From Falsiroseomonas oleicola (GTDB taxonomy: Bacteria; Pseudomonadota; Alphaproteobacteria; Acetobacterales; Acetobacteraceae): DNA of 64,000 nucleotides. How positions within the stretch are numbered: the first letter of the stretch is position 1; every line of letters starts with the position of its first letter. The notes below the pieces were generated by a model. That model ran no database searches and was not told where the DNA came from. It saw nothing but the letters and a program-made list of their open reading frames with translations. A program made the translations under genes and the position numbers. The DNA is taken from positions 124,001-188,000 of the forward strand of contig NZ_JAERQM010000002.1 of assembly GCF_019029495.1 (NCBI RefSeq), read 5' to 3'. Below are positions 7,100-27,013 of the stretch, one piece after another.

Positions 7100-8604
7100 C
7101 CGCGCCGCGTCGCTACCTGGCACTGCACCTGCCCGCCTTCGCGACAGACCGGCTGCGCCGCGCGGAGCCCGACCTGCCACAGGACGTGCCGCTGGCCATC
7201 TGGGCCAGCCAGGGGCCGCGCCGCCTGCTCTCGGCCGTGGATTTGCGGGCCTGGGCGGCCGGGCTGCGGCCGGGCCAGGCGCTGGCCGATGCCCAGGCCA
7301 TCGCGCCGGACCTGCTGCTGCGCCCCGCCGATCCGGAAGGCGACCTGCGCCTGCTGGAGGGCCTCGCCCTCTGGGCCCGGCGCTACACGCCGCTGGCGGC
7401 GCTGGATGCGCCGGATGGGCTGCTGCTCGACATCACCGGCTGCGACCATCTGTGGGGTGGGGAGGCGGCCCTTCTGGCGGAGGCGCAGGAGCGGCTGTGG
7501 CGGGCCGGATTCGCGGTGCGGGGCGCGGTGGCCGGCGCCGCCGCCACCGCCGGCGCCCTGGCCCGCGCCCACGGGGATGGCCCGGTGGCGCCCAGCGGGG
7601 CGGAGGCCGAATGGGTGGGGCCGCTCTCCATCGCCCCGGCGCTGCGGCTGGACCCGGCGCTGCTGGAACAGTTGGGGGGGCTGGGGCTGATGACCGTGGC
7701 GGATCTTTTACGCCTGCCGCGCCCCGGCCTCGCCCGGCGCTTCGGGGTGGATCTGCTGGACCGGCTGGATGCCCTCGCCGGCCGGCGGCACGCCCCGCTG
7801 CGCCCGGTGCTGTCGCCGCCCGATCTGGGCGCGGCGCGGGACCTGGTGGAGCCGATCATCACCCGCACCGCCATCGATGCGCTGCTCGACCGGCTGCTGG
7901 ACCAGCTCTGCGCGAAGCTGCGGGCGGCGGGGCGGGGGGCGCGGCAGGTGGTGCTGATGGCCTGGCGGGTGGATGGCGCGGTGCAGGAGGTGGCGATCGG
8001 CACCGGCACCCCGCTGCGCGCCCCCGCCCATCTGCGCCACCTGTTCCGGGACCGTCTGGAACGGCTGGAACCGGGCCTGGGCTTCGAGCGCATGGCGTTG
8101 GAGGCGCGGGTGACCGAGCCGATGAGCGGCGGCCTGCAATCCGCCCTGGCCATTGGCGGCCGGCGGGACGAGGCGGCGGCCCAGCTTCTGGCGCAGTTGC
8201 TCGACCGGCTGCGCCAGCGGGTGAAGGTGCGGCGCCTGGCGCCACGCGATGGGCACTGGCCGGAGCGCAGCGTGGCGGCGCTGCCCCTGCTGGCGCCGAT
8301 GCCCGAGATGCCGGTGGGCTGGGTCCGGCCCGACGCGCCGGTGCTGCTGCTGCGCCGGCCACAGCCGATCGAGGTGGTGGCGTTGCTGCCGGATGATCCG
8401 CCTGCGCTGCTGCGCTGGCGCAACCGCCCTCATCCCGTGCTGCGGGCGGAGGGGCCGAGGCGGCTGGAGCCGGAATGGTGGCGCGGCCCGGGGGTGGCGC
8501 GCGACTACCACCAGGTGGCGCTGGCCAGCGGCGCGCGGCTCTGGCTGTTCCGCGCCGGCCCGCCGGAGGCCGCGCGCTGGATGCTGCACGGGCATCTCCC
8601 TTGA
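7096..8604 (+). CDS. imuB: ImuB, catalytically inactive Y-family polymerase-like protein
   Basis: 502-residue Y-family DNA polymerase relative that acts as the clamp-binding hub for ImuA and DnaE2. The N-terminus RRYLALHLPAFATDRL replaces the catalytic motif DMDAFFASVE of active Y-family enzymes. The metal-binding aspartates are therefore missing, the known signature of ImuB. Later parts include the fingers/palm region, a helix-hairpin-helix segment (LGLMTVADLLRLPRPGLARR) and a little-finger region near LMAWRVDGAVQEVAIGTG. The start overlaps imuA (ATGA) and the stop overlaps the TTG start of dnaE2. Confidence 0.92.
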   Translation: MTAPRRYLALHLPAFATDRLRRAEPDLPQDVPLAIWASQGPRRLLSAVDLRAWAAGLRPGQALADAQAIAPDLLLRPADPEGDLRLLEGLALWARRYTPLAALDAPDGLLLDITGCDHLWGGEAALLAEAQERLWRAGFAVRGAVAGAAATAGALARAHGDGPVAPSGAEAEWVGPLSIAPALRLDPALLEQLGGLGLMTVADLLRLPRPGLARRFGVDLLDRLDALAGRRHAPLRPVLSPPDLGAARDLVEPIITRTAIDALLDRLLDQLCAKLRAAGRGARQVVLMAWRVDGAVQEVAIGTGTPLRAPAHLRHLFRDRLERLEPGLGFERMALEARVTEPMSGGLQSALAIGGRRDEAAAQLLAQLLDRLRQRVKVRRLAPRDGHWPERSVAALPLLAPMPEMPVGWVRPDAPVLLLRRPQPIEVVALLPDDPPALLRWRNRPHPVLRAEGPRRLEPEWWRGPGVARDYHQVALASGARLWLFRAGPPEAARWMLHGHLP

Positions 8605-11600
8605 CCGGCTATGCGGAACTGGCGGCGCGGTCGAATTTTTCTTTCCTCGATGGTGCCTCCCACCCGCAGGAACTGGTGGAGCGGGCGGCGGAGCTGGGCC
8701 TCGCCGGGCTCGGCATCTGCGACACCAATTCCCTGGCCGGCGTGGTGCGCGGCCATGTCGCGGCGAAGGCGAAGGGGCTGCCCTTTCGCGTCGGCTGCCG
8801 GTTGCGGTTGGAGGATGACAGCGAATTCCTGGCCTGGCCGACGGACCGCGCCGGCTATGGCCGCCTGACCCGGCTGCTCTCGGAAGCCCGGATGGCGGCG
8901 CCGAAGGATGCCGGGCGGATCAGCCGCGCCGCGATGCGGCAGGCCGCCACCGGCTGGGTGCTGGCCGCCATTCCGCCGGAGGACCCCGACGCTGCCTTCG
9001 CCGCGCGCCTGCGCGAGGATGCGGCGGCGCTGCGCGGGCAGCTGGCCCTGCCGCTGCTGCTGGCCGCGGCCTGCACCTGTCGCGGCGACGACCAGGCGCG
9101 GCTGGACCGCCTGGCTGCCATCGGCCCCGCGCTGCTCGCCACCGGCGATGTCCGCTACCACGATCCCGCGCGCCGGCCGCTGGCGGATGTGCTGAGCGCG
9201 ATCCGGCTCGGCCGGCCCGTCGCCGCGCTGGGCGGCGCGGCGGAGCCGAATGCCGAGCGCCATCTGAAGCCCCCCGCTGAAGTCGCGCGGCTCTTCGCCC
9301 GCCATCCCCAGGCACTGTCGAACACGCTGGAGGTGCTGCGCGCCACCGCCGGCTTCTCGCTCGACCAGCTTCGCTACGAATATCCGGACGAAATCCTGGA
9401 GGAAGGCCGCAGCCCGCAGCAGACGCTGGAATCGCGGGTCGCCGCCGCGATGGAAACGCGCTGGCCGGATGGCGTGCCGGACCATGTCCGCATCCGCATC
9501 GCGGAGGAGCTGCGGCTGATCGAACAGCTCGGCTACGCGCCCTATTTCCTGACGGTGCATGAGATCGTGCGTTTCGCCCGCGCGCAGACCCCGCCGATCC
9601 TGTGCCAGGGCCGCGGCTCGGCGGCGAATTCGGCGGTGTGCTACGCGCTGGGCGTCACCGCCGTCGATCCGGCGGAGCACGACCTGCTGTTCGAGCGCTT
9701 CATCTCCGCCAGCCGGGGCGAGCCGCCCGATATCGACATCGACTTCGAGCATGAGCGGCGGGAGGAGGTGATCCAGCACCTCTACCAGCGCTATGGCCGC
9801 GACCGCGCGGCGATCTGCGGCACCATCATCCGCTACCGCGCCCGCAGCGCGATCCGCGAGGTCGGCAAGGCGCTGGGCCTGACCGAGGACGTCACCGCGC
9901 GCCTCGCCAAGGCGAGCTGGGGGCCGGGCCGCGAGCGGGAATTGCCGGAGCTGGCGGCGGAGGAGGGGCTGGACACGCGCGATCCGCGCCTCGCCATGGC
10001 GATGGAACTGGCCGGGGAACTGGTCGATTTCCCGCGCCACGCCGCGACCCATGTCGGCGGCTTCGTCATCACCCGCGGGCCCTTGGTGGAACTGGCGGTG
10101 GTCGGCCAGGCGGCGATGCAGGACCGCACCGTGCTGGAATGGGACAAGGACGATGTGGAGGCGCTGGGCATCCTGAAGGTGGATGTGCTGGGGCTCGGCA
10201 TGCTGTCCTGCCTGCGCCGGGGCTTCGACCTGCTGCGCGGCCATGCGCGGCTGGATCTCGATCTCGCCACGCTGCCGCGCGAATGCCCCGAGACCTACGC
10301 CATGCTGCGCCGCGCCGATACGGTGGGCGTCTTCCAGGTGGAAAGCCGGGCGCAGATGAACATGCTGCCACGGCTGCGCCCGGAGAAGTTCTACGACCTG
10401 GTCATCGAGGTCGCCATCGTCCGCCCCGGCCCCATCGCCGGCGACATGGTGCACCCCTATCTGCGCCGCCGTTCCGGGGAGGAGGAGCCGGACTATCCTG
10501 CCCCGGCGGGTGGCGATCCCGATGAGTTGCGGCAGGTGCTCCACAAGACCCTGGGCGTGCCGCTGTTCCAGGAACAGGCGATGCGCATCGCCATGGTCGC
10601 CGCCGGCTTCTCGGCGGATGAGGCCGACCAGTTGCGCCGCGCCATGGCGACCTTCAAGGCGCATGGGCAGGTGGAGAAGTACCGCGACAAGCTGGTCTCC
10701 GGCATGGTCCGGCGCGGCTACCAGCGCGATTTCGCCGAGCGCGTCTACAAGCAGATCGAGGGTTTCGGCAGCTACGGCTTTCCCGAAAGCCACGCCGCCA
10801 GCTTCGCCCTGCTGGTCTATGCCTCGGCCTGGGTGAAGTGCCACCACCCGGCGGTCTTCGCCTGCGCGCTGCTGAACAGCCAGCCCATGGGCTTCTACGC
10901 GCCGGCGCAGATCGTGCGGGATGCGCGGGAACACGGCGTCGCCATCCTGCCCATCGACGTCAATGCCAGCGCCTGGGACTGCACGCTGGAGTCGCGCGCG
11001 GACAGCGCCCAGGGCCTGGCGCTGCGACTCGGCCTGCGGATGGTGACGGGCCTGGCCGGGACGGATGCCGATGCGATCCTCGCGGTGCGGGATGCCCATA
11101 ACGGCGCGCCCTTCGCCAGTGTGGAGGAGGTGGCGCTGCGGGCCGGGGTGGAGCGCCGCGCGCTGGATGCGCTGGCCGCGGCGGATGCCTTTGCCGGATT
11201 CGGCGTGGCACGGCGCCCGGCGGCCTGGGCGGCGCGGGGCGTGGCCGGCGGGCCGCAGGCGCTGCCGCTGTTCGCCGCCGCGCGCGACCCGCTGGCGGAG
11301 GAAGCCCCGCTGATGCCGGAGGCGCCGGTGGCGCTTCGCCCGCCTTCGGAGGGGGAGGGGGTGGTGGAAGATTACCGCGCCACCGGGCTGACGCTGGGCC
11401 GGCATCCGCTGGCGCTGCTGCGGCCGGAACTGACGGCGCTGGGCCATGCCGATACGCGCCAGTTGCTGACGGCGCGGCCCGGTTCCCTGCTGCGCATCGG
11501 CGGGCTGGTGCTGATGCGCCAGCGCCCGGGCTCGGCCAAGGGGGTGATCTTCATCACCATCGAGGATGAGCACGGCGTGGCGAACCTGGTCGTCTTCACC

Positions 11601-11882
11601 GATGTGGCGGCCCGCCACCGCGCCGCCTTGGTCAAGGCCCGGCTGCTGATCGCGGAGGGGTGGGTGGAGCGGGTGGTGGAGCATGCGGAGGTGCCGATCA
11701 CCCATCTCATCATCCGCCGGCTGACGGATCGTTCGGACCTGCTGGACGGGTTGCTGCGGGCGCCGGTGGGGGACGCCGCCTGGGCGGAGCGCAATCTGGG
11801 CCATTCCGACGAGGTCCGGCGCCCGGAATCGGCCGGCCGACGGCCGAAGGCACGGCTGCCGGGAAGCCGGGATTTCCGCTGA
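8601..11882 (+). CDS. dnaE2: Error-prone DNA polymerase DnaE2 (ImuC)
   Basis: 1093-residue C-family polymerase that carries out SOS mutagenic translesion synthesis with ImuA/ImuB. The chosen start is the TTG at 8601, which overlaps the imuB stop and yields (M)TGYAELAARSNFSFLDGASH, the expected PHP-domain opening. The palm has PPDIDIDFEHERREEV near residues 375-390 and a further acidic site in EALGILKVDVLGL. The fingers/tau region includes FPESHAASFALLVYASAW. A C-terminal OB-fold reads LLRIGGLVLMRQRPGSAKG. Length and order match DnaE2 rather than replicative DnaE1. No separate ribosome site is seen, so translation probably depends on imuB. Confidence 0.94.
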   Translation: MTGYAELAARSNFSFLDGASHPQELVERAAELGLAGLGICDTNSLAGVVRGHVAAKAKGLPFRVGCRLRLEDDSEFLAWPTDRAGYGRLTRLLSEARMAAPKDAGRISRAAMRQAATGWVLAAIPPEDPDAAFAARLREDAAALRGQLALPLLLAAACTCRGDDQARLDRLAAIGPALLATGDVRYHDPARRPLADVLSAIRLGRPVAALGGAAEPNAERHLKPPAEVARLFARHPQALSNTLEVLRATAGFSLDQLRYEYPDEILEEGRSPQQTLESRVAAAMETRWPDGVPDHVRIRIAEELRLIEQLGYAPYFLTVHEIVRFARAQTPPILCQGRGSAANSAVCYALGVTAVDPAEHDLLFERFISASRGEPPDIDIDFEHERREEVIQHLYQRYGRDRAAICGTIIRYRARSAIREVGKALGLTEDVTARLAKASWGPGRERELPELAAEEGLDTRDPRLAMAMELAGELVDFPRHAATHVGGFVITRGPLVELAVVGQAAMQDRTVLEWDKDDVEALGILKVDVLGLGMLSCLRRGFDLLRGHARLDLDLATLPRECPETYAMLRRADTVGVFQVESRAQMNMLPRLRPEKFYDLVIEVAIVRPGPIAGDMVHPYLRRRSGEEEPDYPAPAGGDPDELRQVLHKTLGVPLFQEQAMRIAMVAAGFSADEADQLRRAMATFKAHGQVEKYRDKLVSGMVRRGYQRDFAERVYKQIEGFGSYGFPESHAASFALLVYASAWVKCHHPAVFACALLNSQPMGFYAPAQIVRDAREHGVAILPIDVNASAWDCTLESRADSAQGLALRLGLRMVTGLAGTDADAILAVRDAHNGAPFASVEEVALRAGVERRALDALAAADAFAGFGVARRPAAWAARGVAGGPQALPLFAAARDPLAEEAPLMPEAPVALRPPSEGEGVVEDYRATGLTLGRHPLALLRPELTALGHADTRQLLTARPGSLLRIGGLVLMRQRPGSAKGVIFITIEDEHGVANLVVFTDVAARHRAALVKARLLIAEGWVERVVEHAEVPITHLIIRRLTDRSDLLDGLLRAPVGDAAWAERNLGHSDEVRRPESAGRRPKARLPGSRDFR

Positions 11883-11966: not shown

Positions 11967-11995
11967 TTGACAATGATAATGATTCGCATTTGCAT
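11967..11995 (+). promoter_or_regulatory. Fur box within the promoter of the TonB-dependent receptor gene
   Basis: TTGACA (11967-11972) is followed after 17 bases by TTGCAT (11990-11995). Between them lies TGATAAT-G-ATTCGCA (11974-11988), a 7-1-7 Fur-type inverted repeat. Fur bound here would cover the -35/-10 spacer. The motif shares ATGATTCGCA and a following TTGCAT with the box between yejA and yejB. Iron-dependent repression of the receptor is therefore likely. Confidence 0.85.
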
Positions 11996-12024
11996 CCCGC
12001 CTCTTTCACGAGGGGGTAGTTCCG

Positions 12025-14328
12025 ATGTCGTTCCCACAGGCCTTGCCCATCCACCGCCCGCGCCCCTGGCGCGCCCTGCTGCTGGCCACCGTCGCCGCCT
12101 TTGCCGTCAGCCCCGCCCTGGCCCAGGACAGCACCGCCCCCGCCGAGGGCGAGGTGCGGGTGCCGGCGCTCACCCTGCTGCCGCCGGTCAACACCACGGG
12201 CCTGCGCAATGAGCGCCGGCTGATGGACACGCCGGCCACCGTCGATGTCATCTCCGGTGCCGAGCTGGACCGGCAGATGGCGCGGAATGCGGAGGATGTG
12301 TTCCGCTACACCCCCGGCGTCACGGTGAACCGCCAGACCACCGGCACCGACCCCTTCGGCAGCCTCGGCGGCATCACCGTGCGCGGCGTCGGCGGCAACC
12401 GCGTGCTGACCGTGGTGGACGGCTTCCGCACCATCGAACGCATCACCGACAACACCCGAGACGTGGTCGATCCCTGGAACATGAGCCGTGTCGAGGTCGT
12501 GCGCGGCCCGGGCTCGGTGCTCTATGGCTCGGATGCGCTGGGCGGCGTGGTGAACTACATCACCCGCAATCCCTCCGACTATATCCAGCCCGGCCAGAGC
12601 TGGGGCGGCGAGGCGAGCACCAGCTTCTCCTCGCTCGACAACAGCCTGCAAAGCCGCATGACGGTCGCGGCGCGCGCCGCGGAATACTCGGCCATGTTCT
12701 CCTATCAAAGGCGGGATGCCAGCGAGCCCTCGCGCAACAATTCCCGCTCCCCCGACGGCATCTGGAACTGCACGCGCAACACCGCCGCCGGCGCCTTGCC
12801 CTGCAACCGGCTGAACCCGACCGACATCGCTTCCGACAACTACTTTGCGCGTGTCGTCTGGGATCCATTGCCCAACTTCCGCATGCGCTTCACCGCCGAT
12901 GTGATGCAGCGCGCGACGGATGTGGACCAGCGCTACGACCTCGGCCCGACCTCGGCCACCAGCGGCATCACCAACCTCGACTACCAGCGCCGCCAGGCGA
13001 TCAATCGCGGCCTGTTCTCCACCGATGCGGAGTGGCGCCCGGAATATGGCTGGCTCGATTCCGTGCGCATCATGGCCGGCTACCAGCCGCAGGAGATCGA
13101 GCGGACCGGCACGCGGCTGCGCCAGATCGCCAATGGCCAGCGCACCAGCACCTATGACCGGACGACCTATTCCGAGAATGTGCTGCAGGGCGAATTGCAG
13201 CTCAGCTCCAGCCTCAACGTGATCGGCACGCGCCACGTCTTCACCTATGGCGTCTCCGCCAGCACGACGGAGACGGATTATGAGCGGGAGGACATCGCCA
13301 CCAACCTGAACACCGGTGTGCGCACGGTGACGCGGGCCGGTGGCTTCAACTTCGCCAATGCCGATACGCGCCGCCTCGATGCCTTCGCGCAGGATGAGAT
13401 CACGCTGTTCGGCGGAAGGCTGACCCTGGTGCCGGGCATGCGCTATTCCACCACGCGCATCAGCCCGCGCCCGGATGGGGACTACAAGCCGGTGGCAGGC
13501 GCGGAGCCGCGCAACCAGGATGACAGCAACCTGTCGCTGGCGCTGGGTGCCATCTGGCGGCTGGACGAGGTCTTCTCGCTCTATGCGAATTACGGCGAGG
13601 GCTTCAAGCAGCCGACGGCGGAGCAGCTCTATACCTCCCTGCCCAGCACCACCTTCAACCTGGTGCCGAATGCCAACCTGCGGCCGGAGGAAGTGCGCAG
13701 CGTGGAGGGCGGCATCCGCGTGCAGCTTCCGAATGCCTATGCCAGCCTCGGCGTCTTCCGCGCCGACTACACGGACTTCATCCAGAGCTTCGTCAGCATC
13801 CCCGGCACGGCCGACCTGACCTATCAGAACCTCAGCGAGGTGACGGTGCAGGGTGTGGAATTCAGCGGTGCCTGGCGCTTCGCGCGCGACTGGACGCTGA
13901 ATGGCGCGGCCTCCTGGCAGGAAGGTCGCCAGCGCGCCACGCCGACCTCCCAGCGCACCGCCTTCGATGGCGCGCGGCCGCTGACGGCGACGGCGGGCGT
14001 CACCTATGACAACCGCGACCTGCGCACCAGCGTGACCCTGAACGGGACCTATGCGGCGGAGGTGACGGAGGCGAGTTCATCTCAGCTCTACATGCCGAAG
14101 TCCTACCAGGTCTTCGACATGCTGGCCTCCTGGCGGCCGCTGCCGAATGTCGAGTTGAATGGCGGCATCTTCAATCTGCTCGACACGCGCTACCTGCCGC
14201 TGGCCCCCGGCGGCACCACCTATACCCGTTCGGAATTCGCCAGCGACGCGACCAAGGCGACGAACCCGATCGAGCTTCAGGTGGCGCCCGGCCGCACCTT
14301 CCGGCTCGGCGCGCGCGTCACCTTCTGA
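12025..14328 (+). CDS. TonB-dependent outer-membrane receptor, probably haem (hemoglobin-receptor subfamily)
   Basis: 767-residue outer-membrane gated porin. A signal peptide ends near ALAQ at residues 34-37. The plug has TPATVDVISGAELDRQ, FRYTPGVTVNRQ, ITVRGVGGNRVLTVVDG and RVEVVRGPGSVLYGSDALGG. The barrel ends RTFRLGARVTF, with the usual terminal Phe. Motifs YGEGFKQPTAEQLY and NANLRPEEVRSVEGG correspond to the FRAP/NPNL region of haem/haemoglobin receptors. The ATG has AGGGGG about 8 bases upstream and a Fur box in its promoter. Convergent with the yej-type binding protein gene. A siderophore ligand is the main alternative. Confidence 0.87.
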   Translation: MSFPQALPIHRPRPWRALLLATVAAFAVSPALAQDSTAPAEGEVRVPALTLLPPVNTTGLRNERRLMDTPATVDVISGAELDRQMARNAEDVFRYTPGVTVNRQTTGTDPFGSLGGITVRGVGGNRVLTVVDGFRTIERITDNTRDVVDPWNMSRVEVVRGPGSVLYGSDALGGVVNYITRNPSDYIQPGQSWGGEASTSFSSLDNSLQSRMTVAARAAEYSAMFSYQRRDASEPSRNNSRSPDGIWNCTRNTAAGALPCNRLNPTDIASDNYFARVVWDPLPNFRMRFTADVMQRATDVDQRYDLGPTSATSGITNLDYQRRQAINRGLFSTDAEWRPEYGWLDSVRIMAGYQPQEIERTGTRLRQIANGQRTSTYDRTTYSENVLQGELQLSSSLNVIGTRHVFTYGVSASTTETDYEREDIATNLNTGVRTVTRAGGFNFANADTRRLDAFAQDEITLFGGRLTLVPGMRYSTTRISPRPDGDYKPVAGAEPRNQDDSNLSLALGAIWRLDEVFSLYANYGEGFKQPTAEQLYTSLPSTTFNLVPNANLRPEEVRSVEGGIRVQLPNAYASLGVFRADYTDFIQSFVSIPGTADLTYQNLSEVTVQGVEFSGAWRFARDWTLNGAASWQEGRQRATPTSQRTAFDGARPLTATAGVTYDNRDLRTSVTLNGTYAAEVTEASSSQLYMPKSYQVFDMLASWRPLPNVELNGGIFNLLDTRYLPLAPGGTTYTRSEFASDATKATNPIELQVAPGRTFRLGARVTF

Positions 14329-14336
14329 GGTGACCG

Positions 14337-14361
14337 GCCGGCGCCGCATCGCGGCGCCGGC
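14337..14361. terminator. Hairpin between convergent receptor and binding-protein genes
   Basis: A perfect 10-bp GC stem (14337-14346 with 14352-14361) and a 5-base loop fill the 40-bp gap between two convergent stop codons. There is no clear U-run, so it may be a weak bidirectional terminator or an mRNA-stabilising end. Confidence 0.55.
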
Positions 14362-14368
14362 ACAATGC

Positions 14369-16174
14369 TCAATCGCGGCACCACCAGGCGTCGTCGCCAT
14401 AGCCGAAGCGCGGCGGCTGGGGTGGCGCGGTGAAGCGGGCGGAAACCGCCAGTCGCCGCATCGGATTGTAGTAGGACGGCACCACCAGCCACTGCCATTG
14501 CAGCGCCCGGTCCAGCACCCGCGCCGTGCTGCGCAGGCTGTCGCGGTCCGGCGCCGCCACCAGCCGGTCCAGCAGCGCATCCAGCGCCGGATTCGCGATG
14601 CCGCTGAGATTGCCGCTGCCCGTGCGTGACGCGGCTTCCGAGGACCACAGGTTGCGCTGCTCCGCCCCCGGCCATTCCGGCGGGATGGTGAAGCGGAAGG
14701 CGAGGTCGAAATCGCGCGCGCGGATGCGCTGGGCGAAGGTGGAGGCGTCCAGGATCTCGAAGCGCGGGTTGATGCCGATGCGCCGCAGCGCGCGGAACCA
14801 GACGGTGATCAGCGCCTGCTGCGCATTGCTCTGCGCCAGGACCGACAGGCTGAAGAGCTCGCCGGTTTCCTTGTGCACCAGCCTGCCGTCATCCTCCCGC
14901 GGTGCCCAGCCGGCGGCGTCGAGCAAGGCGAGGGCGCGTTCCAGCATGGCGCGGTCGCGGCCGCTGCCATCGCTGCGCGGCGGCTGCCAGGCACGGTCGA
15001 AAGCCTCGGGCGGAAACAGCCCCGGAAATTCCGCCATCAATGCGCGCTCCGCCGCATCGGGTGGCTCCTGCGCGGCGAGGTCGGAATTCTCGAAAAAACT
15101 GCCGGTGCGCCGGAAGCTTTCATGGAACAGCGCGGCATTGGCCCATTCGAAATCGAGCAGAGTGGTCAGCGCCTCCCGCACCCGCGCATCGGCGAATCGC
15201 GCGCGGCGCAGGTTGAAGCCGAAGCCGTTCATGCCCGTGATGTACCAATGCGGCTGTTCGACGCGGCGGATGCGGCCATCGCGCACCGCGGGCGTGTCGT
15301 AGCCCACGGCCCAGCGCCGGGTATCGGCCTCGATCATCCAGTCGGCATTGCCGGCGAGCAGCGATTCGAAGGCGGCGATGCGGTCGCGGTGGTAGGTCAC
15401 CTCGATCCGGTCGAAATTCCAGCGGCCGCGCGCCGTCGGCAGGTCGCGCGCCCACCAGTCGCGGTTGCGCTCGAAGACCACGCGGCGGCCCGGATCCACC
15501 TCCGTCACGCGATAGGGGCCGCTGCCGGGCGGCGCATCCATGGTCAGCGCGCCGAATTCGCGCCCCTGCCAATAGTGGCGCGGCAGGATCTGCACGGCGC
15601 CGAGGCGCAGCACCGCATTGGCCGGGTCCCCGGGCGGCAGGCGGAAGCGCACGACGCGCGGCGATTCGGCCACCGGATCGGCATGTTCGAACAGGGCGCG
15701 GAAATGCGGCCGGCCCTCCCGCCCCAGGGTCTGGGCGGTGAAGACCACGTCATCGGCCGTGATCGGGCTGCCATCGGTGAAGCGCGCCTCCGGCCGCAGG
15801 GTGAAGCGCACCAGCCGCGCCTCCGCGTCGATCTCGAAGCTTTCGGCGAGGTGGCCATAGGCCGCCTGGGCCTCGTCCGGATTGCCCATCAGCAGGGAAT
15901 CGAAGGACCAGGTCCAGACGCCCATCACCATGCGGCCGCGCAGGGTGAAGGGGTTCAGCGTGTCGAAGGTGCCGGGCTGCACCATGCGCAGGGTGCAGCC
16001 CTTGGGTGCATCCGGATTCACATGCGGGAAATGGGTGAAGCCCGGGGGCAGGGCCGGGGCGGCATGCGCGGCCACGGCGTCGTGGCGTGGTGCCTGCGCG
16101 GCCCCTGGGGCCGGCATGCCGAAAAACAGGGGAAGGACGCCGAAGGCGGATATGCAATTGCGAATCATTTGCAT
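14369..16174 (-). CDS. yejA: YejA-like extracellular solute-binding protein (SBP_bac_5 family)
   Basis: 601-residue periplasmic binding protein of the oligopeptide class, closest in layout to YejA. The signal peptide runs MIRNCISAFGVLPLFFG to about AQA. Family motifs include FTHFPHVNPDAPKG, DTLNPFTLRG, the cluster-C stretch ARFTDGSPITADDVVFT, and GMNGFGFNLRRARFADARVR. Two ATGs fit (16174 and 16168), both inside the Fur box; a stop two codons upstream rules out a longer form, and no good ribosome site is visible. Divergent from the permease genes through a shared 30-bp promoter region. The locus suggests haem or a metallophore as ligand rather than plain peptides (inference). Confidence 0.86.
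   Translation of the reverse strand: MQMIRNCISAFGVLPLFFGMPAPGAAQAPRHDAVAAHAAPALPPGFTHFPHVNPDAPKGCTLRMVQPGTFDTLNPFTLRGRMVMGVWTWSFDSLLMGNPDEAQAAYGHLAESFEIDAEARLVRFTLRPEARFTDGSPITADDVVFTAQTLGREGRPHFRALFEHADPVAESPRVVRFRLPPGDPANAVLRLGAVQILPRHYWQGREFGALTMDAPPGSGPYRVTEVDPGRRVVFERNRDWWARDLPTARGRWNFDRIEVTYHRDRIAAFESLLAGNADWMIEADTRRWAVGYDTPAVRDGRIRRVEQPHWYITGMNGFGFNLRRARFADARVREALTTLLDFEWANAALFHESFRRTGSFFENSDLAAQEPPDAAERALMAEFPGLFPPEAFDRAWQPPRSDGSGRDRAMLERALALLDAAGWAPREDDGRLVHKETGELFSLSVLAQSNAQQALITVWFRALRRIGINPRFEILDASTFAQRIRARDFDLAFRFTIPPEWPGAEQRNLWSSEAASRTGSGNLSGIANPALDALLDRLVAAPDRDSLRSTARVLDRALQWQWLVVPSYYNPMRRLAVSARFTAPPQPPRFGYGDDAWWCRD
16159..16173. promoter_or_regulatory. Fur box in the divergent yejA/yejB promoter, overlapping the yejA start codon
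   Basis: TGCGAAT-C-ATTTGCA is a 7-1-7 inverted repeat of the Fur type. Read on the minus strand it contains AATGATTCGCA, identical to the core of the box before the TonB-dependent receptor. Only 30 bp separate the two start codons, so one operator can control both directions. It physically covers the yejA initiation codon(s). Confidence 0.82.
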
Positions 16175-16204
16175 ATATCAGGGCCAACGCCGCTCCAGGG
16201 CAAG

Positions 16205-17276
16205 ATGCAACTGCACCGCTACATCCTCCGCCGCCTGCTTCTCGTGCCGCCGACGCTGCTGGCGATCGTGGCCCTGAACTTCATGGTCGCCCAGCTCGCG
16301 CCGGGCGGGCCGGTGGAGCATATGATCGCGACGCTCGGCGGCGATGTGCAGGATGCGGCGGAGCGTGCGCTGGGCGCCCAGGCCTTCGACGAGCCGCAGG
16401 AGCCCGCCTTGCGCTACCGCGGCAGCGAGGGCATGGACCCGCGCCTGGTGGCGGAGATCGAGCGGCAGTTCGGCTTCGACAAGCCGCCACTGGAACGCTT
16501 CTGGCTGTTGCTGCAGAGGCTGGTGACCTTCGACCTCGGCCGGTCGCTGTTCCTCGACCGGCCGGTGGTGACGCTGCTGTGGGAGAGGTTGCCGGTCACC
16601 GCCTCCCTCGGTGCCTGGTCGATGCTGTTCACCTATCTCATCGCCGTGCCGCTGGGCATCGCGCTGGCGGTGCGGCGCGGCAGCCGCTTCGACCGGATGG
16701 CCACGGCCATCACCGTCGGGCTGCATGCGGTGCCGGCCATGGTGGTCGCCGTGGTGCTGCTGGTGGTCTTTGCCGGTGGCCGCTTCTGGCAGTGGTTCCC
16801 GGCCGGCGGGCTGCTTTCCGCCGATGCCGCCAGCCTGTCCTGGCCGCTTCTGGTGCTGGACTGGCTGTGGCACCTGGTGCTGCCGGTCTCGGCCATGGTG
16901 ATCGCCGGCTACTCCTCCCTCGCGCTGATGACCCGCAACCTGTTCCTGGAGGAGCTGGGCAAGACCTATGTCCTGCTCGCCCAGGCCAAGGGGCTGGCGC
17001 CGCGCCGCGTGCTGTTCGGCCATGTCTTCCGCAACGCCATGCTGGTCATCGCCGCCGGCCTGCCCGCCGCGCTGCTGATGGAGCTGTCGAGCGGCGCGGT
17101 GCTGATCGAGGCGCTGTTCGGCCTGCAGGGCCTCGGCCTGCTCGGCATCGATGCCGCGCTCAGCCGCGACTTTCCGGTGATCTTCGGGACGCTGTGGCTG
17201 TTCACCCTGCTCGGGCTGCTGATGCACCTGGCTTCGGACCTGCTTTATGTCGCGATCGACCCGCGTATCGGCTTCG

Positions 17277-17293
<17 letters not shown>
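16205..17293 (+). CDS. yejB: YejB-like ABC transporter permease
   Basis: 362-residue inner-membrane permease of the peptide/nickel class. The N-terminus LHRYILRRLLLVPPTLLAIV is the typical first membrane helix, followed by a long periplasmic loop and a five-helix BPD_transp_1 core. The coupling (EAA) loop is LLAQAKGLAPRRVLFGHVFR, facing the ATPase. The insertion VEHMIATLGGDVQDA after the first helix is as in YejB. AGGG lies a few bases before the ATG. Its end overlaps the next gene by 17 bp. Probably controlled by the Fur box just upstream. Confidence 0.9.
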
Positions 17294-19804
<2,511 letters not shown>

Positions 19805-19808
<4 letters not shown>

Positions 19809-20539
19809 GCGAGACCACCCCCGACACCCTGCCGAAACGCTTCCTGCTGGAGGCCAGCCTGGAGGAGGTGGCGGCGATGCTGCCGGCGATCGGCCGCGCC
19901 ATGGTCGGCATCAGCGGCGGCGGCACCACGCATGAGCGTATCGGCGTGATCGCGGCCGCGCCCTGCACGGCGGAGACGCTGCGCATCCAGGGCGAGCAGC
20001 ATGATTCGGAACTGGCGCTGGCCCGCGTGGTGCGCGTGATCGGCGACCGCAGCAGCACCATGCGCGGCAAATCCTATCCGCGCTTCGAATTCAAGGATGC
20101 GGCGGATGTGACGCTGATGTCGGTCACCGCGATGGACGGCGCCGAACTCTACGACGAAGCCGTGCGCGCCCATGTCGGCACGGTGCTGGAGTCGCCACCG
20201 CGCCCCGACCTGCCGCCCACGGACCAGCAGCCCGAGGCCGATGCCGGCAATGCGGCGCTGGAGGCGCTGCGCGACAGCGGCGGCCAGGTGGAGATCGGCT
20301 TCGGCGAGGCCGGCGCCCGCCAGGTCTGGCGCGGCCAGGTGGAGGAGGTGAAGGGGGTGATGGGCTACGCCAATATCATCCGCCCGGACTTCCACCTGCA
20401 TCTGCGCGGCGGCTCCGTCACCGGCTTCCGCCGGACGGAGGCCGGGCTGGCGGCGCTGGATGCGCAGGGGGCGGAAACCGGGCTGGTGCTCCGGCCGCTG
20501 GATGCGGCGGCGGAAGCAGCCCTGGCCAGCTTCGGCTGA
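19805..20539 (+). CDS. HutX/ChuX/HemS-like haem utilisation protein (divergent)
   Basis: 244-residue cytoplasmic protein with no signal peptide. The second half matches the HutX/HemS pattern: ARQVWRGQVEEVKGVMG, then IIRPDFHLHLRGGSV, where HemS-type proteins have G-QIHTG-V, then NVLDP-FNLHLR. The first half has MLPAIGRAMVGISGGGTTHE and GVI, similar to the LG-VM...HE..GVY stretch of that family. Such proteins bind, carry or degrade haem in the cytoplasm. Its ATGA overlap with the ABC transporter gene ties it to import of the same ligand. Divergence is substantial and haem ligands cannot be assigned from sequence, so the family call is likely but not certain. Confidence 0.68.
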
Positions 20540-20542
20540 GCC

Positions 20543-21265
20543 ATGCGGGCGGCGCTGCTGCGGTTCCGGCGCGACGGTTTCGCGGTGTTGCCCGGCCCGC
20601 CGGCGGCCTTGCAGGACCGGCTGCGGGCGCTTCTGGGAAGGCTGGACCGGCGCGCGCTGAGCCCGGCTGAACGCGGTCGCTGCGTCATGGAATCCGCCCT
20701 GAGGGAAAGCCAGCGCGGCATGGCGCTGCCGGAGGGGCGGGACGCCATCTTCATCCTCGGCGAGCCCGGCCGGCTGCATCCGGCCTTTTCGGCGGCGGTG
20801 GCGCATCCCCGCGTCATCGCCGCCGTGTCGCGGGCGCTGGGCAGCGAAAGGCTCGCCTTCCACTTCGCCAATGTCACCGCCAAGGCGGCGGGCTTCGGCA
20901 GCGGCATCGCCTGGCACCGGGACGCCACCAACCGCTACATGCCGAGCCGGCGTGGCGCCTTCCTGCGCGCCATGATCTGCCTGGACGGCATGCGCCCGGC
21001 CAATGGCGGCACCGCCTTCCGGCCCGGCTCGCATCGCGGCGCCAGCCGGCCGGCGGTGGTGCCACGGGTGCCCAGGGGCGGGCTGGTGCTGATCCATGCC
21101 CGGGTGCTGCATGGCGGCGCGCCGAACCGCTCCGCCACACCGCGCCGCAACCTGATCGTGCAATGGGGAAGGCGGGACGATCCGCTGGTCCTGCGCAACC
21201 GGGAAAGCCAGACCGGCCGCCCGCCCACATCGCTGGCGCGCCCCGGGCGCTGGCTGACGGGTTGA
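20543..21265 (+). CDS. PhyH-type Fe(II)/2-oxoglutarate-dependent dioxygenase
   Basis: 240-residue protein of the phytanoyl-CoA dioxygenase superfamily. The iron-binding facial triad is visible as His125-x-Asp127 in AWHRDATNRYM and His190 in RVLHGGAPNRS. RRNLIVQW near the C-terminus could supply the arginine that binds 2-oxoglutarate. LDGMRPANGGTAFRPGSHRG is the usual segment preceding the distal His. The substrate is unknown. It starts 3 bp after the HutX-like gene, so it is probably in the iron-controlled operon, which would fit a non-haem iron enzyme working on a metallophore or haem-derived compound (inference). Confidence 0.78.
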   Translation: MRAALLRFRRDGFAVLPGPPAALQDRLRALLGRLDRRALSPAERGRCVMESALRESQRGMALPEGRDAIFILGEPGRLHPAFSAAVAHPRVIAAVSRALGSERLAFHFANVTAKAAGFGSGIAWHRDATNRYMPSRRGAFLRAMICLDGMRPANGGTAFRPGSHRGASRPAVVPRVPRGGLVLIHARVLHGGAPNRSATPRRNLIVQWGRRDDPLVLRNRESQTGRPPTSLARPGRWLTG

Positions 21266-22157: not shown

Positions 22158-23231
22158 ATGAAGATCGCGCGCGTCACGACCCATCTGCACCGCAGCCCCT
22201 TCACCTATGGGGCGGGCGCCCAGACCAGCGGCGGCAATCTGCGGCTGCGGGAGATCGAGACGCTGCTGGTGCGCGTCGAGACCGAGGATGGCCTGCATGG
22301 CTGGGGGGAGGGGTTCGGCTTCTCCCTGGCCGGCACCACGCGGGATGCGGTGGACCGGCTGGTCGCGCCTGCCTGTATCGGCCAGGATGCCGGCGACATC
22401 GCCGGGCTCGGCGCCATGCTGGCGCGCCGCTTCCACAATTACGGCCGCAACGGGCCGGTGAGTTTCGCGCTGGCGGCCATCGACATCGCCTTGTGGGACA
22501 TCGCGGCGAAGGCGCGCGGCCTGCCCTTGCATGCGCTGCTGGGCGATGCGGCAAGGCCCAGCGTGCCGGCCTATGCCAGCCTGCTGCGCTATGGCGTGGC
22601 CGCCGATGTGGGGCGCAACGTGGCGGAGGCGGTGCGGCGCGGCTATCGCCAGATCAAGCTGCATGAGGTGGACATCGCCTGCATCCGCGCGGCCCGGGCA
22701 GTGGCGCCGGCCGAGGTGCCGCTGATGCTCGATATCAACTGCGCCTTCGATGAGCTGGCCGACGCGCGCGATTTCTGCGCCGCCGTGCGCGACCTGCATA
22801 TCGGCTGGGTCGAGGAGCCGGTCTGGCCGCCGGAGGATTTCGGCAGCCTCGCCACGCTGCGGCGGGAGGCCGGGGTGCCGATCTCGGCCGGGGAGAATCT
22901 GGGCGGCGTGCCGGATTTCGCGCGGTTGTTCGCGGCCGGCGCGGTGGATGTGGCGCAGCCCAGCATCACCAAGCATGGCGGCGTCTCCGGCCTGATGGCG
23001 GTGGCCGGGCTGGCGGCGAAGGCCGGCGTGGCGGTGGTGCCGCATGCGCCCTATTTCGGGCCGGGGCTGCTGGCCACGCTGCATCTGCTGGCGGCCTGGC
23101 CCCGGGCCGCGCCGCTCGAAATCTATTTTGCCGATCTCGCAGCGCCGCCCTATCCGGAACTGTGCGTGCGGGATGGCGCCATCGCCGTGCCCCAGGCCCC
23201 CGGGCTGGGGCTGGAACCCGCCATCGGATAG
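22158..23231 (+). CDS. Mandelate racemase/muconate lactonizing enzyme family protein (enolase superfamily)
   Basis: 357-residue enzyme of the enolase superfamily, which abstracts a proton next to a carboxylate using a Mg2+ ion. The capping domain (residues 1 to about 125) precedes a TIM-like barrel. A Lys-x-His motif occurs in YRQIKLHE. Metal ligands are the Asp of LMLDINCAF, the Glu of WVEEPVWPPED and the Glu of ISAGENLGG. A late His lies in VVPHAPYFGPGL. Substrate cannot be deduced. The start has no strong ribosome site but aligns with the family N-terminus. A repeat array lies immediately downstream. Confidence 0.87.
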   Translation: MKIARVTTHLHRSPFTYGAGAQTSGGNLRLREIETLLVRVETEDGLHGWGEGFGFSLAGTTRDAVDRLVAPACIGQDAGDIAGLGAMLARRFHNYGRNGPVSFALAAIDIALWDIAAKARGLPLHALLGDAARPSVPAYASLLRYGVAADVGRNVAEAVRRGYRQIKLHEVDIACIRAARAVAPAEVPLMLDINCAFDELADARDFCAAVRDLHIGWVEEPVWPPEDFGSLATLRREAGVPISAGENLGGVPDFARLFAAGAVDVAQPSITKHGGVSGLMAVAGLAAKAGVAVVPHAPYFGPGLLATLHLLAAWPRAAPLEIYFADLAAPPYPELCVRDGAIAVPQAPGLGLEPAIG

Positions 23232-23258: not shown

Positions 23259-23502
23259 CCTGCGGCGGGCGAAGCTGGCCAAGCGCCCGAATGGGCGCCG
23301 CGCCAAGTGGCGCGCAGCCAAGCCGGCGGAGCCGGCGCCCGGCGCATGAGGGACTGGAAATATCCTGCGGCCGGCGAAGCTGGCCGAGCGCCCGAATGGG
23401 CGCCGCGCCAGGTGGCGCGCAGCCAAGCCGGCGGAGCCGGCGCCCGGCGCATGAGGGTCATAAAATTCCAAGCCCCCGGAGGGGGCGCCCGGCGCCTGAG
23501 GG
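23259..23502. repeat. Intergenic palindromic repeat array (two 94-bp copies plus a short third copy)
   Basis: Copies at 23259-23352 and 23364-23457 differ at only a few positions. A shortened copy at about 23470-23502 keeps the end GGCGCCTGAGGG. Each copy contains GCCGCGCC-AGTGGCGCGCAG, then AAGCCGGCGGAGCC, then a GGCGC-TGAGGG end, with small GC hairpins. Short AT-richer spacers separate the copies. The same family recurs at 39029-39212 and 52976-53078. The last copy ends 9 bp before the stop codon of the minus-strand gene. No coding function is seen in this gap. Confidence 0.85.
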
Positions 23503-23511
23503 CCTCGAAAT

Positions 23512-24357
23512 TCACGGCAGCATGATCGGCGCCAGCCCGTGCCGTTCGGCCGCGCGGGCCAGGCTGCCATCGACCCGGCTGCGCTCCAGGAAGGCGTTGA
23601 CCTCGTTCAGCCAGGCCTGGTCGCCACGCGGCATGGCATAGGCGTAGAGCGTGTCGCCGAAGCGGCCGGGCGGGTCGATGACCCGCGCCCAGTCATGCAT
23701 CAGCACCATCCGCCGGGTATAGGGAAAGTCGGACATGAAGACATCGGCCCGGCCCGACAGGATTTCCCCCTCCCGCGTCCGGGGCGGGGTCACCACCATC
23801 ACCTCCGCGTTGCGCAGCGTCTCCCGCATCAGCGGTTCCATCACCGTCCCGGCGGCCACGGCCACCACCGTGCCGGGGCTGTCGATGTCCCGCCAGCTCT
23901 GCACCCGGGTATTGGTGCGCGTGGTCACCGCATAGACGGCGCTGGCCATATAGGGCTTCGAGAAGGCCACACGCAGGGCGCGAGCGGGAGTGATGCCGAC
24001 CGCCATCATCGCGATGTCGCAGCGCCCCTCCTCCAGCCTTGCCATGAATTCGGTGAAATTCGTCTCGATGAAGGCCGGCCGCACCTGGAGTCGCGCCGCC
24101 AGGCCGCGCGCCATGTCGATGTCGAGGCCTTCCATCTCGCCGTTCCGGGGATTGCGGTAGGAGATCGCGAAATAATCCGGCCAGATACAGACCAGCAGTT
24201 CACCACGGCTGCGGATCGCGCCCAGGCGGCCGGGTGCGGACGGGGTTGCGGTCGCGTCAGGCGGTCCTGACAGAATTTGCGCCCGAACTGCGTCTCTCCG
24301 CTCGCAAATTAAGACAAAAAGAACCATAAACGTCGTCGCAAAGATGGCTCCACGCAT
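23512..24357 (-). CDS. Periplasmic amino-acid-type solute-binding protein (SBP_bac_3)
   Basis: 281-residue bacterial family-3 binding protein. The N-terminus [17 protein letters not shown] is a signal sequence or anchor. The mature part has [35 protein letters not shown], and [19 protein letters not shown] followed by RVAFSKPYM, all family hallmarks. No permease genes are adjacent. The neighbour is a divergent hybrid sensor kinase, and the two start regions overlap by about 14 bp. The protein may serve sensing rather than transport (inference). Start alternatives are ATG 24327 and an ATG at 24441 that would give an 84-bp longer N-terminus inside the kinase gene. Confidence 0.82.
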
Positions 24358-27013
24358 CACCCAACTCCGTTTCGCCCTGCGGCGCTCGCTGGGCCTCGGC
24401 GCACCCCGCCCCGCCGAGCCGCGTCCCTGGCTGCTGTTCACCGCGGCCGTCGGGCTGGTCGCCCTGTGCCTTGTGGGAATCTACAGCATCCTGATGCATC
24501 GCGGCCAGCAGGACGCCATCGCGGATGCGGAAAGGCTGACCCAGGGGGTCGCCGCCGGGCTGGCGGACCAGCTCACCCGCGCCATCCAGACGGTCGACCT
24601 GGTGATGCTGGATGCCCAGGACCGGCTGACGGAAGCCGAGCCGGGCCAGGTCGCGCGGCAGGTCACCGTCCGCATCCGGGATGTGCCGCAGCTGCGCGCC
24701 GTGCTGATCGCCGATGCCCAGGGCTTCATCATCGCCAGCTCGGTGGAGGGGCTGCGCGAGGCCTCGGTGGCGGAGCGGGAATGGTTCCGCCTGCTGCGCT
24801 TCGGCGGCCAGGCCCTGCGCCTGGGCGCGCCGGAGGCCGGGCGCTACCTTGGCCCCACCGGGCGGGCCATCGGCCATGCCGGCGGGCTCTATGCCATTCC
24901 CTATGCCCGGGCGCTGCGCGGGCCGCGCGGCGAATTCCTCGGCACCATCATCGCCATCCTGAATCCGGACTACTTCGTCGGCGTGGCCCGGCGCCATGCG
25001 GAGAGCTTCGGCGCCGTCATCCGCATCCATTCCTTCCAGGGCCTGCTGCTGGCCCGTTCCGATGGCCGGGTGGAAGGGGTGGGGGAGCTGAATTCCTCCT
25101 CCTGGATCTTCCGCGATTTCCTGCCACGCCGGGAATCCGGCACCTGGGCCGGAATCGACCAGGACCGGTCCGATGTCGTCGCCTCCTTCGCCGTCACCCG
25201 CCAGGGGGCCTTCGTGGTCGAGGTCGCCCGCAACCGGGAGGATGCGCTGGACAGCGCGCATCGCCTGGGCGCGCTGCTGGCCGCCGGTGTCGCCGCCGCC
25301 GCCGTGGTCACGCTGGTGGCGCTGTGGCTGCTGGTGCGCCAGGCCCAGGCGCTGAAGATGCAGGGCCAGCGCCTTTCCGAGTCCGAGCGTCATGCCGTCG
25401 CCGCCTCCCGCGCCAAGGAGGATTTCCTGGCCTCGATGAGCCATGAGATCCGCACGCCGATGAATGGCGTGATCGGCATGACCGGCCTGCTGCTGGACAC
25501 GCGGCTCGACAGCCTCCAGCGCCGCTATGCCGAGACCATCCAGGGCTCCGCCGAGCATCTGATGCTGGTGCTGAACGACATCCTCGACTTCTCCAAGCTG
25601 GAGGCGGGGGCGCTGCAGATCGAGCAGGTGCCCTTCAACATCGAGGCCGAGATCGCCACGATCGTCGAGCTTTTCGCCCCGCGCGCCGCCGCCAAGGGGG
25701 TGGAGCTGGTCTGCGCCCTGTCGCCCGAACTGCCGGCGCGCGTCATGGGCGACCCCGGCCGCATCCGCCAGATGCTGTTCAACCTGGTCGGCAACGCCGT
25801 GAAATTCACCGAGACGGGCTGGATCCAGGTGGCGATCTCGGTCGATGCCGAGCTGGACTACTGGCGGCTGCGCGCCTCCGTCTCCGACACCGGAATTGGC
25901 ATCGAGCGCGACAAGATCGCGCATCTGTTCGAACGCTTCACCCAGGCCGATGCCTCGATCCGCCGCAAATACGGCGGCACCGGCCTGGGGCTCGCCATCT
26001 GCAAGCGGCTGGCGGAGGAGATGGGCGGCGGGATCGAGGCGGTGCCGCGGCTGGCCGGGGTGCGCAATGGCGGCGGCAGCGTCTTCCGCTTCTCCGTGAA
26101 GATCGGCCGGGTGGAGGGCGACCAGCAGCCGCTGACCGGCCTCGCCGGGCGCCGCGTTCTGGTGGTGGACGACCTGCCGCTGAACCGGGAAATCCTGGTG
26201 CGACAGTTGGTCGGCATGGGGGCGGAAGCCGCCGCCGTTTCCGATGGCGGCACCGCGCTCGCCGCGCTGCGCGCCGCCGCCAGCCAGGGCCGGCCCTTCG
26301 AGGCGGCGGTGCTGGACGGGCAATTGCCGGATGGCGACGGCCTGGCCCTGGCGCGGCGCATCCGCCAGGACTGGGACAGCTTTGGCCGGCCGCGCCTGCT
26401 GCTCTGCGCTTCCGGTTCCGCCGACCCGCGGGAGGCGCAGCGCCAGGGGGGGCATTCGGGGAACCATTCGGGGCAGGGGGTGCTCGACGGGCTGCTGCTG
26501 AAGCCGGCGCTGCCGACCCGGCTGCGGGACGCGCTGCTGCTGGCGCTGGCGCCACGCCAGGCGGCGGCGGCGCCCGCCCCGGCGCCCGAGCCGAGCCCCG
26601 AACCGGAGGGGCCGCAGATCCGCATCCTGCTGGTCGAGGACAACCCGACCAACCAATTGGTCATGCGCACCATCCTGTCCCGCGCCGGGGCCCTGGTGGA
26701 GGTGGCGGGGGACGGGGCGCAGGCCGTGGCGGCGGCGGAGGGCGACCCCTTCGATGCCATCCTGATGGACCTTCAGATGCCGGTGATGGACGGGCTGGAG
26801 GCCACCCGCACCATCCGCGCCAGGTCCGGGCCCAACAGCGGCACCCGCATCATCGGCCTGACCGCCGCCGTCGGCCCGGAATTCGAGCGGCAGTGCCGGG
26901 AGGCGGGGATGGACGACTACCTCGGCAAGCCGGTGCAGCGCGAGACGCTACTGCGCAAGCTGGGCCTCGCGGTCAAGCCGAAGCAACCCGCCGGCTCCGA
27001 CCGCGCCGCGTAA
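24344..27013 (+). CDS. Hybrid histidine kinase with periplasmic sensor and two receiver domains
   Basis: 889-residue membrane kinase. TM1 is at about residues 30-50 and TM2 at about 306-330, enclosing a periplasmic PDC/dCache-like sensor of roughly 250 residues. HisKA carries the phosphorylated His367 in [12 protein letters not shown]. HATPase_c shows [13 protein letters not shown] and [12 protein letters not shown]. Receiver 1 (about 603-720) has VLVVDD and the acceptor Asp in [12 protein letters not shown]. Receiver 2 (about 760-880) has ILLVEDN and [12 protein letters not shown]. There is no Hpt domain, so phosphate must pass to an external partner. The divergent binding-protein gene may supply its ligand (inference). 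Confidence 0.92.

What the first reader, a model, noticed from the sequence alone, without database searches (positions are those of the whole stretch)
11967..21265. Candidate Fur-regulated haem uptake system using a Yej/Dpp-type ABC importer
Two near-identical Fur boxes control a haemoglobin-type TonB receptor and a divergent SBP_bac_5/permease pair. The permease operon runs on, coupled, into a HutX/ChuX/HemS-like protein and an Fe(II)/2OG dioxygenase. Usual haem loci use HmuTUV; here an oligopeptide-class importer takes that place. E. coli DppABCDF with DppA/MppA is known to import haem, so the chemistry is plausible. A peptidic metallophore is the main alternative ligand.
Basis: partly seen in the sequence, partly recalled or inferred. 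Interest (0 to 1): 0.8.

Follow-up and report, generated by a model that had tools for sequence, protein, structure and literature searches.

The report
Iron-controlled haem-like uptake, peptide importer
A bacterium carries an iron-controlled import system that joins an outer-membrane receptor and haem-handling-type proteins to a peptide transporter; relatives swap in a different peptide transporter, and the usual haem-gripping residues are gone, so its exact cargo is open.

Summary
In detail: receptor, divergent YejA-type binding protein, YejB, a YejE-YejF fusion, a HemS-fold protein and a PhyH dioxygenase. The two operators match at 17 of 18 bases and recur in this genome before hemP-hmuR, exbBD, another TonB receptor and chaN, so Fur control is well supported. 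(2) On plasmids of Paracoccus, Devosia, Pannonibacter and Rhizobium, receptor, HemS-like protein and ChaN sit with a SbmA/BacA-like ABC transporter instead of Yej. Against plain haem uptake: this genome has its own hmu locus, so nothing is replaced; both canonical haem-ligand histidines are missing from 10 of 10 aligned receptors; the HemS-like protein lacks the HemS axial-His segment and distal Arg. Best reading: a second Fur-controlled uptake system for a haem-class ligand, possibly peptide-bound; rival: a peptidic metallophore. The ligand is not shown.

The parts
11978..11995 (+). Fur-type operator upstream of the TonB receptor
12025..14328 (+). TonB-dependent receptor, TIGR01786/TIGR01785 type, distinct clade with ERITDx(T/S)RD in the plug instead of the haem-ligand His
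14369..16174 (-). YejA/MbnE-type periplasmic binding protein (SBP_bac_5)
16152..16169 (-). Fur-type operator overlapping the start codon of the binding protein and lying upstream of the permease operon
16205..17293 (+). YejB-type permease
17247..19808 (+). YejE permease fused to YejF (two ABC ATPase domains)
19805..20539 (+). HemS-fold protein (two HemS/ChuX domains) lacking the HemS axial-His segment
20543..21265 (+). PhyH-family Fe(II)/2-oxoglutarate dioxygenase with conserved HRD, distal His and Arg

Best explanation
A second, Fur-controlled iron-uptake system, additional to the genome's hmu locus, for a haem-class ligand in a form or binding mode other than Hmu's (haem, a porphyrin/haem derivative, or haem still attached to a peptide). 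When iron is short, Fur leaves the two operators and the unlinked chaN operator. The TonB receptor brings the ligand through the outer membrane; the YejA-type protein captures it; the YejB/YejEF-fusion ABC importer moves it in; the HemS-fold protein receives it; the ChaN-fold protein, PhyH and, in some relatives, HmuQ help take it apart so that iron is freed. In other alphaproteobacteria a SbmA/BacA-like transporter with an ATPase domain does the inner-membrane step with the same receptor, HemS-like and ChaN proteins. Shown by computation: gene set, operators, conservation, co-occurrence, folds, transporter swap. Inferred: ligand class, order of steps, chemistry of ChaN and PhyH.
For: Operator shared with hemP-hmuR, an exbD operon and a further TonB receptor. 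Nearest solved receptor PhuR, E 2.3e-57. HemS-like model (mean pLDDT 92.1) best matches ChuS/PhuS/HemS, E 1.3e-15 to 2.9e-13; 7 of 11 members tested exceed Pfam's HemS cut-off. chaN occurs in 8 of 8 HemS-like carriers and 2 of 291 other genomes at E < 1e-40, lies in the G195 cluster, carries the operator at its own start in this genome, and its model's best match is haem-bound ChaN 2g5g, E 2.2e-11. Beside chaN in G195, G602 and G703 lies a homologue of haem-degrading HmuQ; the G195 copy scores 143.9 against a cut-off of 130, and G195 has none in the 16 kb fetched around its canonical hmu locus. YejABEF and BacA/BclA import a common peptide (PMC10128002, passages); E. coli Dpp imports haem (PMC3792355, passage).
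Against: Both canonical haem-ligand His of the receptor are missing in 10 of 10 aligned members. The HemS-like protein lacks the segment with HemS His196 and has no Arg at the Arg102 place. 7 of 8 carriers already have canonical HemS and a FecCD-type gene. The binding protein is closest to MbnE (methanobactin binder) and YejA. The window HemS-like protein itself is below Pfam's cut-off (21.5 versus 24), as are 3 of the other 10 tested. No HmuQ homologue lies in the window, the own chaN stretch (19 kb) or the own hmu stretch (17 kb); the whole genome was not searched for it. No haem role of PhyH is known to me (recalled).
Confidence: 0.58

Rival explanations
1. The ligand is a peptidic or RiPP-like metallophore (own or foreign siderophore, methanobactin-like). 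The receptor and Yej/SbmA-like importer take up the metal-peptide; the ChaN-fold protein (Tiki/EreA-like superfamily) hydrolyses it and PhyH and the HemS-fold protein process or bind the product.
For: Both alternative importers are peptide-transporter types. Binding protein closest to MbnE, E 2.2e-117. Receptor lacks the haem-ligand His. The ChaN-like proteins show no signal peptide on reading their starts; Foldseek also gives erythromycin esterase EreC, E 1.7e-4. In Azoarcus a ChaN-family gene is followed by an M1 aminopeptidase. The genome already has hmu.
Against: Two haem-type families (HemS, ChaN) track the receptor and HmuQ joins in 3 of 8 carriers. Receptor is nearest haem receptors. 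No siderophore biosynthesis gene stands among the annotated neighbours in the 5 plasmid loci; no dedicated search was made. The MbnE and YejA scores are close to each other, so MbnE being first says little.
Confidence: 0.2
2. One reading: ordinary uptake of free haem or haemoglobin haem, chemically like Hmu, through a Yej importer.
For: Fur operator shared with hmu; receptor HMM scores above cut-off; HemS fold; HmuQ beside chaN in 3 of 8; G703 carries this system and shows neither canonical HemS nor FecCD above cut-off. PMC3792355 (passage) names PhuR, the nearest solved relative, as a haem receptor lacking some standard elements, and PMC6018153 (passage) reports that HmuS His196/Arg102 mutants lose degradation but not binding.
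Against: Missing ligand residues at receptor and HemS-like protein, which the same genome's HmuR and HemS keep; redundancy with hmu in 7 of 8.
Confidence: 0.18
3. Corrinoid or another non-iron tetrapyrrole uptake, or uptake of antimicrobial peptides for detoxification.
For: BacA-related transporters import cobalamin and antimicrobial peptides (PMC12003926, passage).
Against: Iron-type operator shared with hmu and exbD; receptor scores 102.7 against the B12-receptor cut-off of 599.7.
Confidence: 0.04

Closest known systems
HmuRSTUV/PhuRSTUVW-type haem uptake
   Same: TonB haem/Hb-type receptor, HemS-fold protein, Fur operator; a full hmu locus lies in the same genome under the same motif
   Different: Inner-membrane importer is Yej- or SbmA/BacA-like, not HmuTUV; ligand residues missing; ChaN and PhyH added
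E. coli DppABCDF with DppA/MppA (haem through a peptide permease)
   Same: Peptide-class SBP_bac_5 ABC importer proposed to carry a haem-class ligand (PMC3792355, passage)
   Different: Yej branch with YejE and YejF fused; iron-type operator and its own linked receptor
YejABEF (microcin C, phazolicin importer)
   Same: YejA, YejB, YejE, YejF homologues; phazolicin enters by either YejABEF or BacA (PMC10128002, passages)
   Different: Fusion of E and F; Fur-type operator; TonB receptor and HemS/ChaN partners
Campylobacter ChaN
   Same: Best fold match 2g5g and Pfam PF04187
   Different: No signal peptide seen on reading the N-termini, so probably cytosolic, whereas annotators call it a lipoprotein
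HmuQ (IsdG-type haem-degrading protein)
   Same: Gene beside chaN in G195, G602 and G703; G195 copy above the HmuQ cut-off
   Different: Not found in the stretches held for the other 5 carriers
MbnT/MbnE methanobactin uptake
   Same: Binding protein's closest solved relative is MbnE
   Different: Receptor is of haem type; methanobactin genes were not searched for

Membership tests
Fur regulon | Operator motif shared with known iron genes of the same genome, beyond chance | tested here: met
   9 genome sites, 6 of 9 at TonB/haem/ChaN genes including the 2 window sites, 3 of 9 not; SBP/permease operator in 9 of 9 Yej-type loci where that place was held
Fur regulon | Fur binding and iron response measured | not testable with these tools
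   needs ChIP or transcript data
TonB haem/haemoglobin receptor | Curated HMM cut-off | tested here: met
   TIGR01786 368 versus 323.75; TIGR01785 325.4 versus 316.85; the own HmuR scores 518 on TIGR01785
TonB haem/haemoglobin receptor | Plug His and FRAP-NPNL loop His as haem ligands | tested here: not met
   0 of 10 aligned clade members; plug column is Asp142 in 10 of 10; own HmuR has both. The plug His as ligand is recalled; the FRAP/NPNL His is in PMC3792355
HemS/ChuX superfamily | Fold and profile membership | tested here: met
   7 of 11 members over the Pfam HemS cut-off, the window protein not (21.5 of 24)
HemS/ChuS/PhuS haem-degrading proteins | Axial His (HemS His196) and distal Arg102 | tested here: not met
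   segment absent and Arg not at its place in 5 of 5 family rows of A2; residues named in PMC6018153
YejABEF importer | YejA, YejB, YejE and YejF homologues together | tested here: met
   NCBIfam scores stay below the curated cut-offs (YejB 385.8 of 445, YejF 385.1 of 834, YejE-type 294.9 of 439)
HmuTUV/FecCD importer | FecCD-type permease in the cluster | tested here: not met
   none in the cluster; present elsewhere in the genome
ChaN | PF04187 and ChaN fold | tested here: met
ChaN | Secreted lipoprotein that binds haem | tested here: inconclusive
   no signal peptide seen by eye in 5 of 5 (no predictor run); haem binding not testable

The most novel reading that the evidence does not exclude
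The system imports haem still attached to peptide (for example haem c peptides from broken-down cytochromes). Such a ligand brings its own axial histidine, which would explain why receptor and HemS-like protein lack theirs, why two unrelated peptide importers serve with the same receptor, and why a Tiki/esterase-superfamily ChaN protein and a dioxygenase travel with it.
Probability: 0.14. Interest if true: 0.85.

Novelty: new variant of a known kind. Interest (0 to 1): 0.63.

Why it matters
It would add a modular iron-scavenging system in which a core (receptor, HemS-fold protein, ChaN) is paired with either of two peptide importers, give promiscuous Yej and SbmA/BacA-like transporters a dedicated nutritional role, and give apparently cytosolic ChaN proteins a context in which their function can be tested directly.

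Tried and rejected
Replacement of HmuTUV: rejected for this genome. One-domain HutX: rejected, the model matches two-domain HemS. PhyH as a stand-in for ChaN in the Yej version (considered): rejected when chaN was found unlinked in the own genome and in the cluster of G195. The operator was not found (14 or more of 18) in the 5 plasmid loci; their iron regulators may differ (recalled). In the 260 bases before those receptors the only perfect 7-base inverted repeat is one far upstream in the two Pannonibacter loci. Between chaN and hmuQ of G195 no operator of 14 or more was found. PhuR ligand residues could not be confirmed in print (nothing listed). ChaN had no sequence hit in PDB up to E 1. 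A first ChaN alignment (A7) used the wrong strand for 3 rows and was redone. Wider searches of class (24 of 385 genomes matched) and phylum (43 of 398) showed no further full-length HemS-like member besides the own one; the other matches are partial, mostly in frames of canonical HemS length. One broken remnant next to chaN lies in G924. Tistrella has receptor plus SbmA/BacA-like transporter without HemS-like or chaN in the 26 kb fetched. Two chaN matches with E 6e-5 and 7e-4 (G119, G107) were left out of the co-occurrence count, and 7 weaker receptor matches (427 bits or less). The co-occurrence p-values ignore kinship of genomes. Papers: searches listed nothing describing this gene set in the held library; that is not proof of absence, since most subscription journals are missing.
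Full report
What is there. The window contains a TonB-dependent receptor (12025-14328, +), a family 5 solute-binding protein (14369-16174, -), and an operon-like row on the + strand: YejB-type permease (16205-17293), YejE-YejF fusion (17247-19808), a 244-residue protein (19805-20539) and a PhyH dioxygenase (20543-21265).

Operators. AATGATTCGCATTTGCAT precedes the receptor and AATGATTCGCAATTGCAT lies between the binding protein and the permease; they are the only matches within 3 mismatches in 64 kb (expected 0.02). Genome-wide there are 9 sites at up to 2 mismatches and none for the reversed-pattern control. Besides the two window sites they lie before chaN, before hemP-hmuR (hemP named by eye), before a row of genes with ExbD (Pfam; ExbB by eye; a 155-residue gene comes first), before another TonB receptor (Pfam), before a 147-residue protein without Pfam match, and at two places without an evident iron gene. 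In the Yej-type loci the SBP/permease operator was found in 9 of 9 loci in which that place is held (window, G195, G044, G124, G602, G640, G724, G703, G685) and the receptor operator in 8 of 8 (the same without G640, whose fetched stretch ends inside the receptor), at 14 or more of 18 positions; in G724 and G685 the receptor site has only 14. L018 starts inside the permease. The SBP operator overlaps the start of the binding-protein gene: its bases encode the first residues (M-T-R-x-C-I or similar) in 8 of 8 loci translated.

Conservation. The HemS-like protein recurs with its neighbours in L018, G195, G602, G703, G044, G124 and G640 (42-84% identity) and in G724 (30%); in G703 the cluster is split over two contigs. 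phyH lies between receptor and binding protein in G044, G124 and G640 and was not found in the stretch held for G724; in G703 and G685 it cannot be judged. Its HRD motif is conserved in 7 of 7 sequences, its distal His and Arg in the 6 that reach so far (G602 is cut by the contig end).

A missing member: chaN. A search of the own genome for PF04187 found one gene, on another contig, with the operator about 20 bases before its start. Among 299 genomes of the order, 8 carry the HemS-like protein at E below 1e-30; the receptor clade occurs in 9 (1227 bits or more, next best 426.5); chaN at E below 1e-40 in 10. All 8 HemS-like carriers and all 9 receptor carriers have chaN. The one extra receptor carrier, G685, has receptor, binding protein, permease and chaN together, but reads N after the permease, so its HemS-like gene cannot be judged. 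The one extra chaN, G049, is only 41% identical. Fisher tests give 3e-14 (HemS-like and chaN) and 2e-16 (receptor and chaN), without correction for kinship; five further genomes listed as the same genus lack all three at these thresholds. Three of five unlinked chaN genes examined have the operator at 14 or more of 18 (own, G602, G703; not G124, G724).

HmuQ beside chaN. In G195 chaN lies downstream of phyH, with a 108-codon gene on the opposite strand between them. It is an ABM-domain protein that passes the HmuQ haem-degrading-protein cut-off (143.9 of 130). Compared with all 207 sequences held, homologues lie beside chaN in G602 (75%) and G703 (70%), and near HemS-length frames in G273 and G559 (55-56%); none in the window, the own chaN or hmu stretches, the 16 kb around G195's own hmu locus, or the stretches held for G044, G124, G640 and G724. 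So 3 of 8 carriers show it, with stretches of unequal length. This is the most direct haem link found.

The swapped transporter. Five plasmid records match the HemS-like protein. In all five (Paracoccus, Devosia, two Pannonibacter, Rhizobium) the order is receptor, transporter, HemS-like, ChaN (in Rhizobium a 48-codon annotated frame overlaps the HemS-like start). All five transporters carry SbmA_BacA, ABC_membrane_2 and ABC_tran domains. Four of the receptors are 36-42% identical to the window's (the fifth 40.5%), against 29% for the genome's own HmuR. Over 11 loci the distances correlate: receptor/HemS-like 0.76, receptor/ChaN 0.89, HemS-like/ChaN 0.60; 0, 0 and 12 of 2000 permutations reach this. 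Published work shows that phazolicin enters by both BacA and YejABEF (PMC10128002, passages read).

What the proteins look like. Receptor: above both haem-type NCBIfam cut-offs, one of them narrowly, nearest solved PhuR. The column that holds the plug His of the own HmuR holds Asp142 in 10 of 10, within ERITDx(T/S)RD (one member has ESITD), and the FRAP-NPNL loop has no His in 10 of 10. HemS-like: AlphaFold2 mean pLDDT 92.1, best solved matches ChuS, PhuS and HemS. The alignment of own HemS to 2j0p places HemS His196 in the DVHEFF segment (numbering counted by hand), and this segment is missing in the window family; the Arg102 position is not Arg. His196 as axial ligand is from PMC6018153 (passages), which also reports that mutating His196 or Arg102 in HmuS stops degradation but not binding. 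ChaN: mean pLDDT 81.1, best match 2g5g, haem-bound ChaN, then toxin-domain and erythromycin-esterase entries of the wider superfamily. No signal peptide is visible by eye in own, Devosia, Rhizobium, Paracoccus and Pannonibacter ChaN, so the label lipoprotein is doubtful. Binding protein: MbnE, a family 5 protein and YejA are nearly equal best hits.

Reading. Iron-type operators, a haem-type receptor, two haem-type folds and, in three relatives, HmuQ point to a haem-class ligand. Two peptide-class importers and missing axial ligands point away from bare haem bound in the usual way. Canonical HemS and a FecCD gene are present in 7 of 8 carriers (side by side in 6; in G724 on different contigs), so this system more likely serves a different ligand or form; G703, with neither above cut-off, cuts the other way. 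I put 0.58 on a haem-class ligand in an unusual form or binding mode, 0.18 on plain haem, 0.20 on a peptidic metallophore.

Novelty. Each part is a known family; the combination, its core-plus-swappable-importer layout and the ChaN link were not found in the searches made (listings, plus passages of the papers named). I therefore call it a new variant of a known kind.

Noticed in passing
window 23259-23457 and 23423-23513: A 105-base unit repeated 1.9 times at 96% and a 45-base unit twice, between the enolase-superfamily gene (22158-23231) and a family 3 solute-binding protein (23512-24441).
   Followed up: partly
window 8475-11882: A DNA polymerase III alpha-type gene (PHP, alpha, finger, HHH domains) directly upstream of the receptor; perhaps DnaE2, not checked.
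   Followed up: no
L126 8897-9803: In G924 a fragment of the HemS-like gene lies beside a chaN matched in two frames, which looks like a decaying copy.
   Followed up: partly
L204 11881-15928: Tistrella mobilis plasmid pTM3 has the receptor and a SbmA/BacA-like transporter but no HemS-like or ChaN gene in the 26 kb fetched.
   Followed up: partly
L205 9833-13095: Azoarcus plasmid: a ChaN-family gene is followed by an M1 aminopeptidase gene with overlapping ends.
   Followed up: no
L197 1024-1467: A 147-residue protein without Pfam match has the same operator (1 mismatch) about 33 bases before its start in the own genome: a possible unknown iron-regulated gene.
   Followed up: partly
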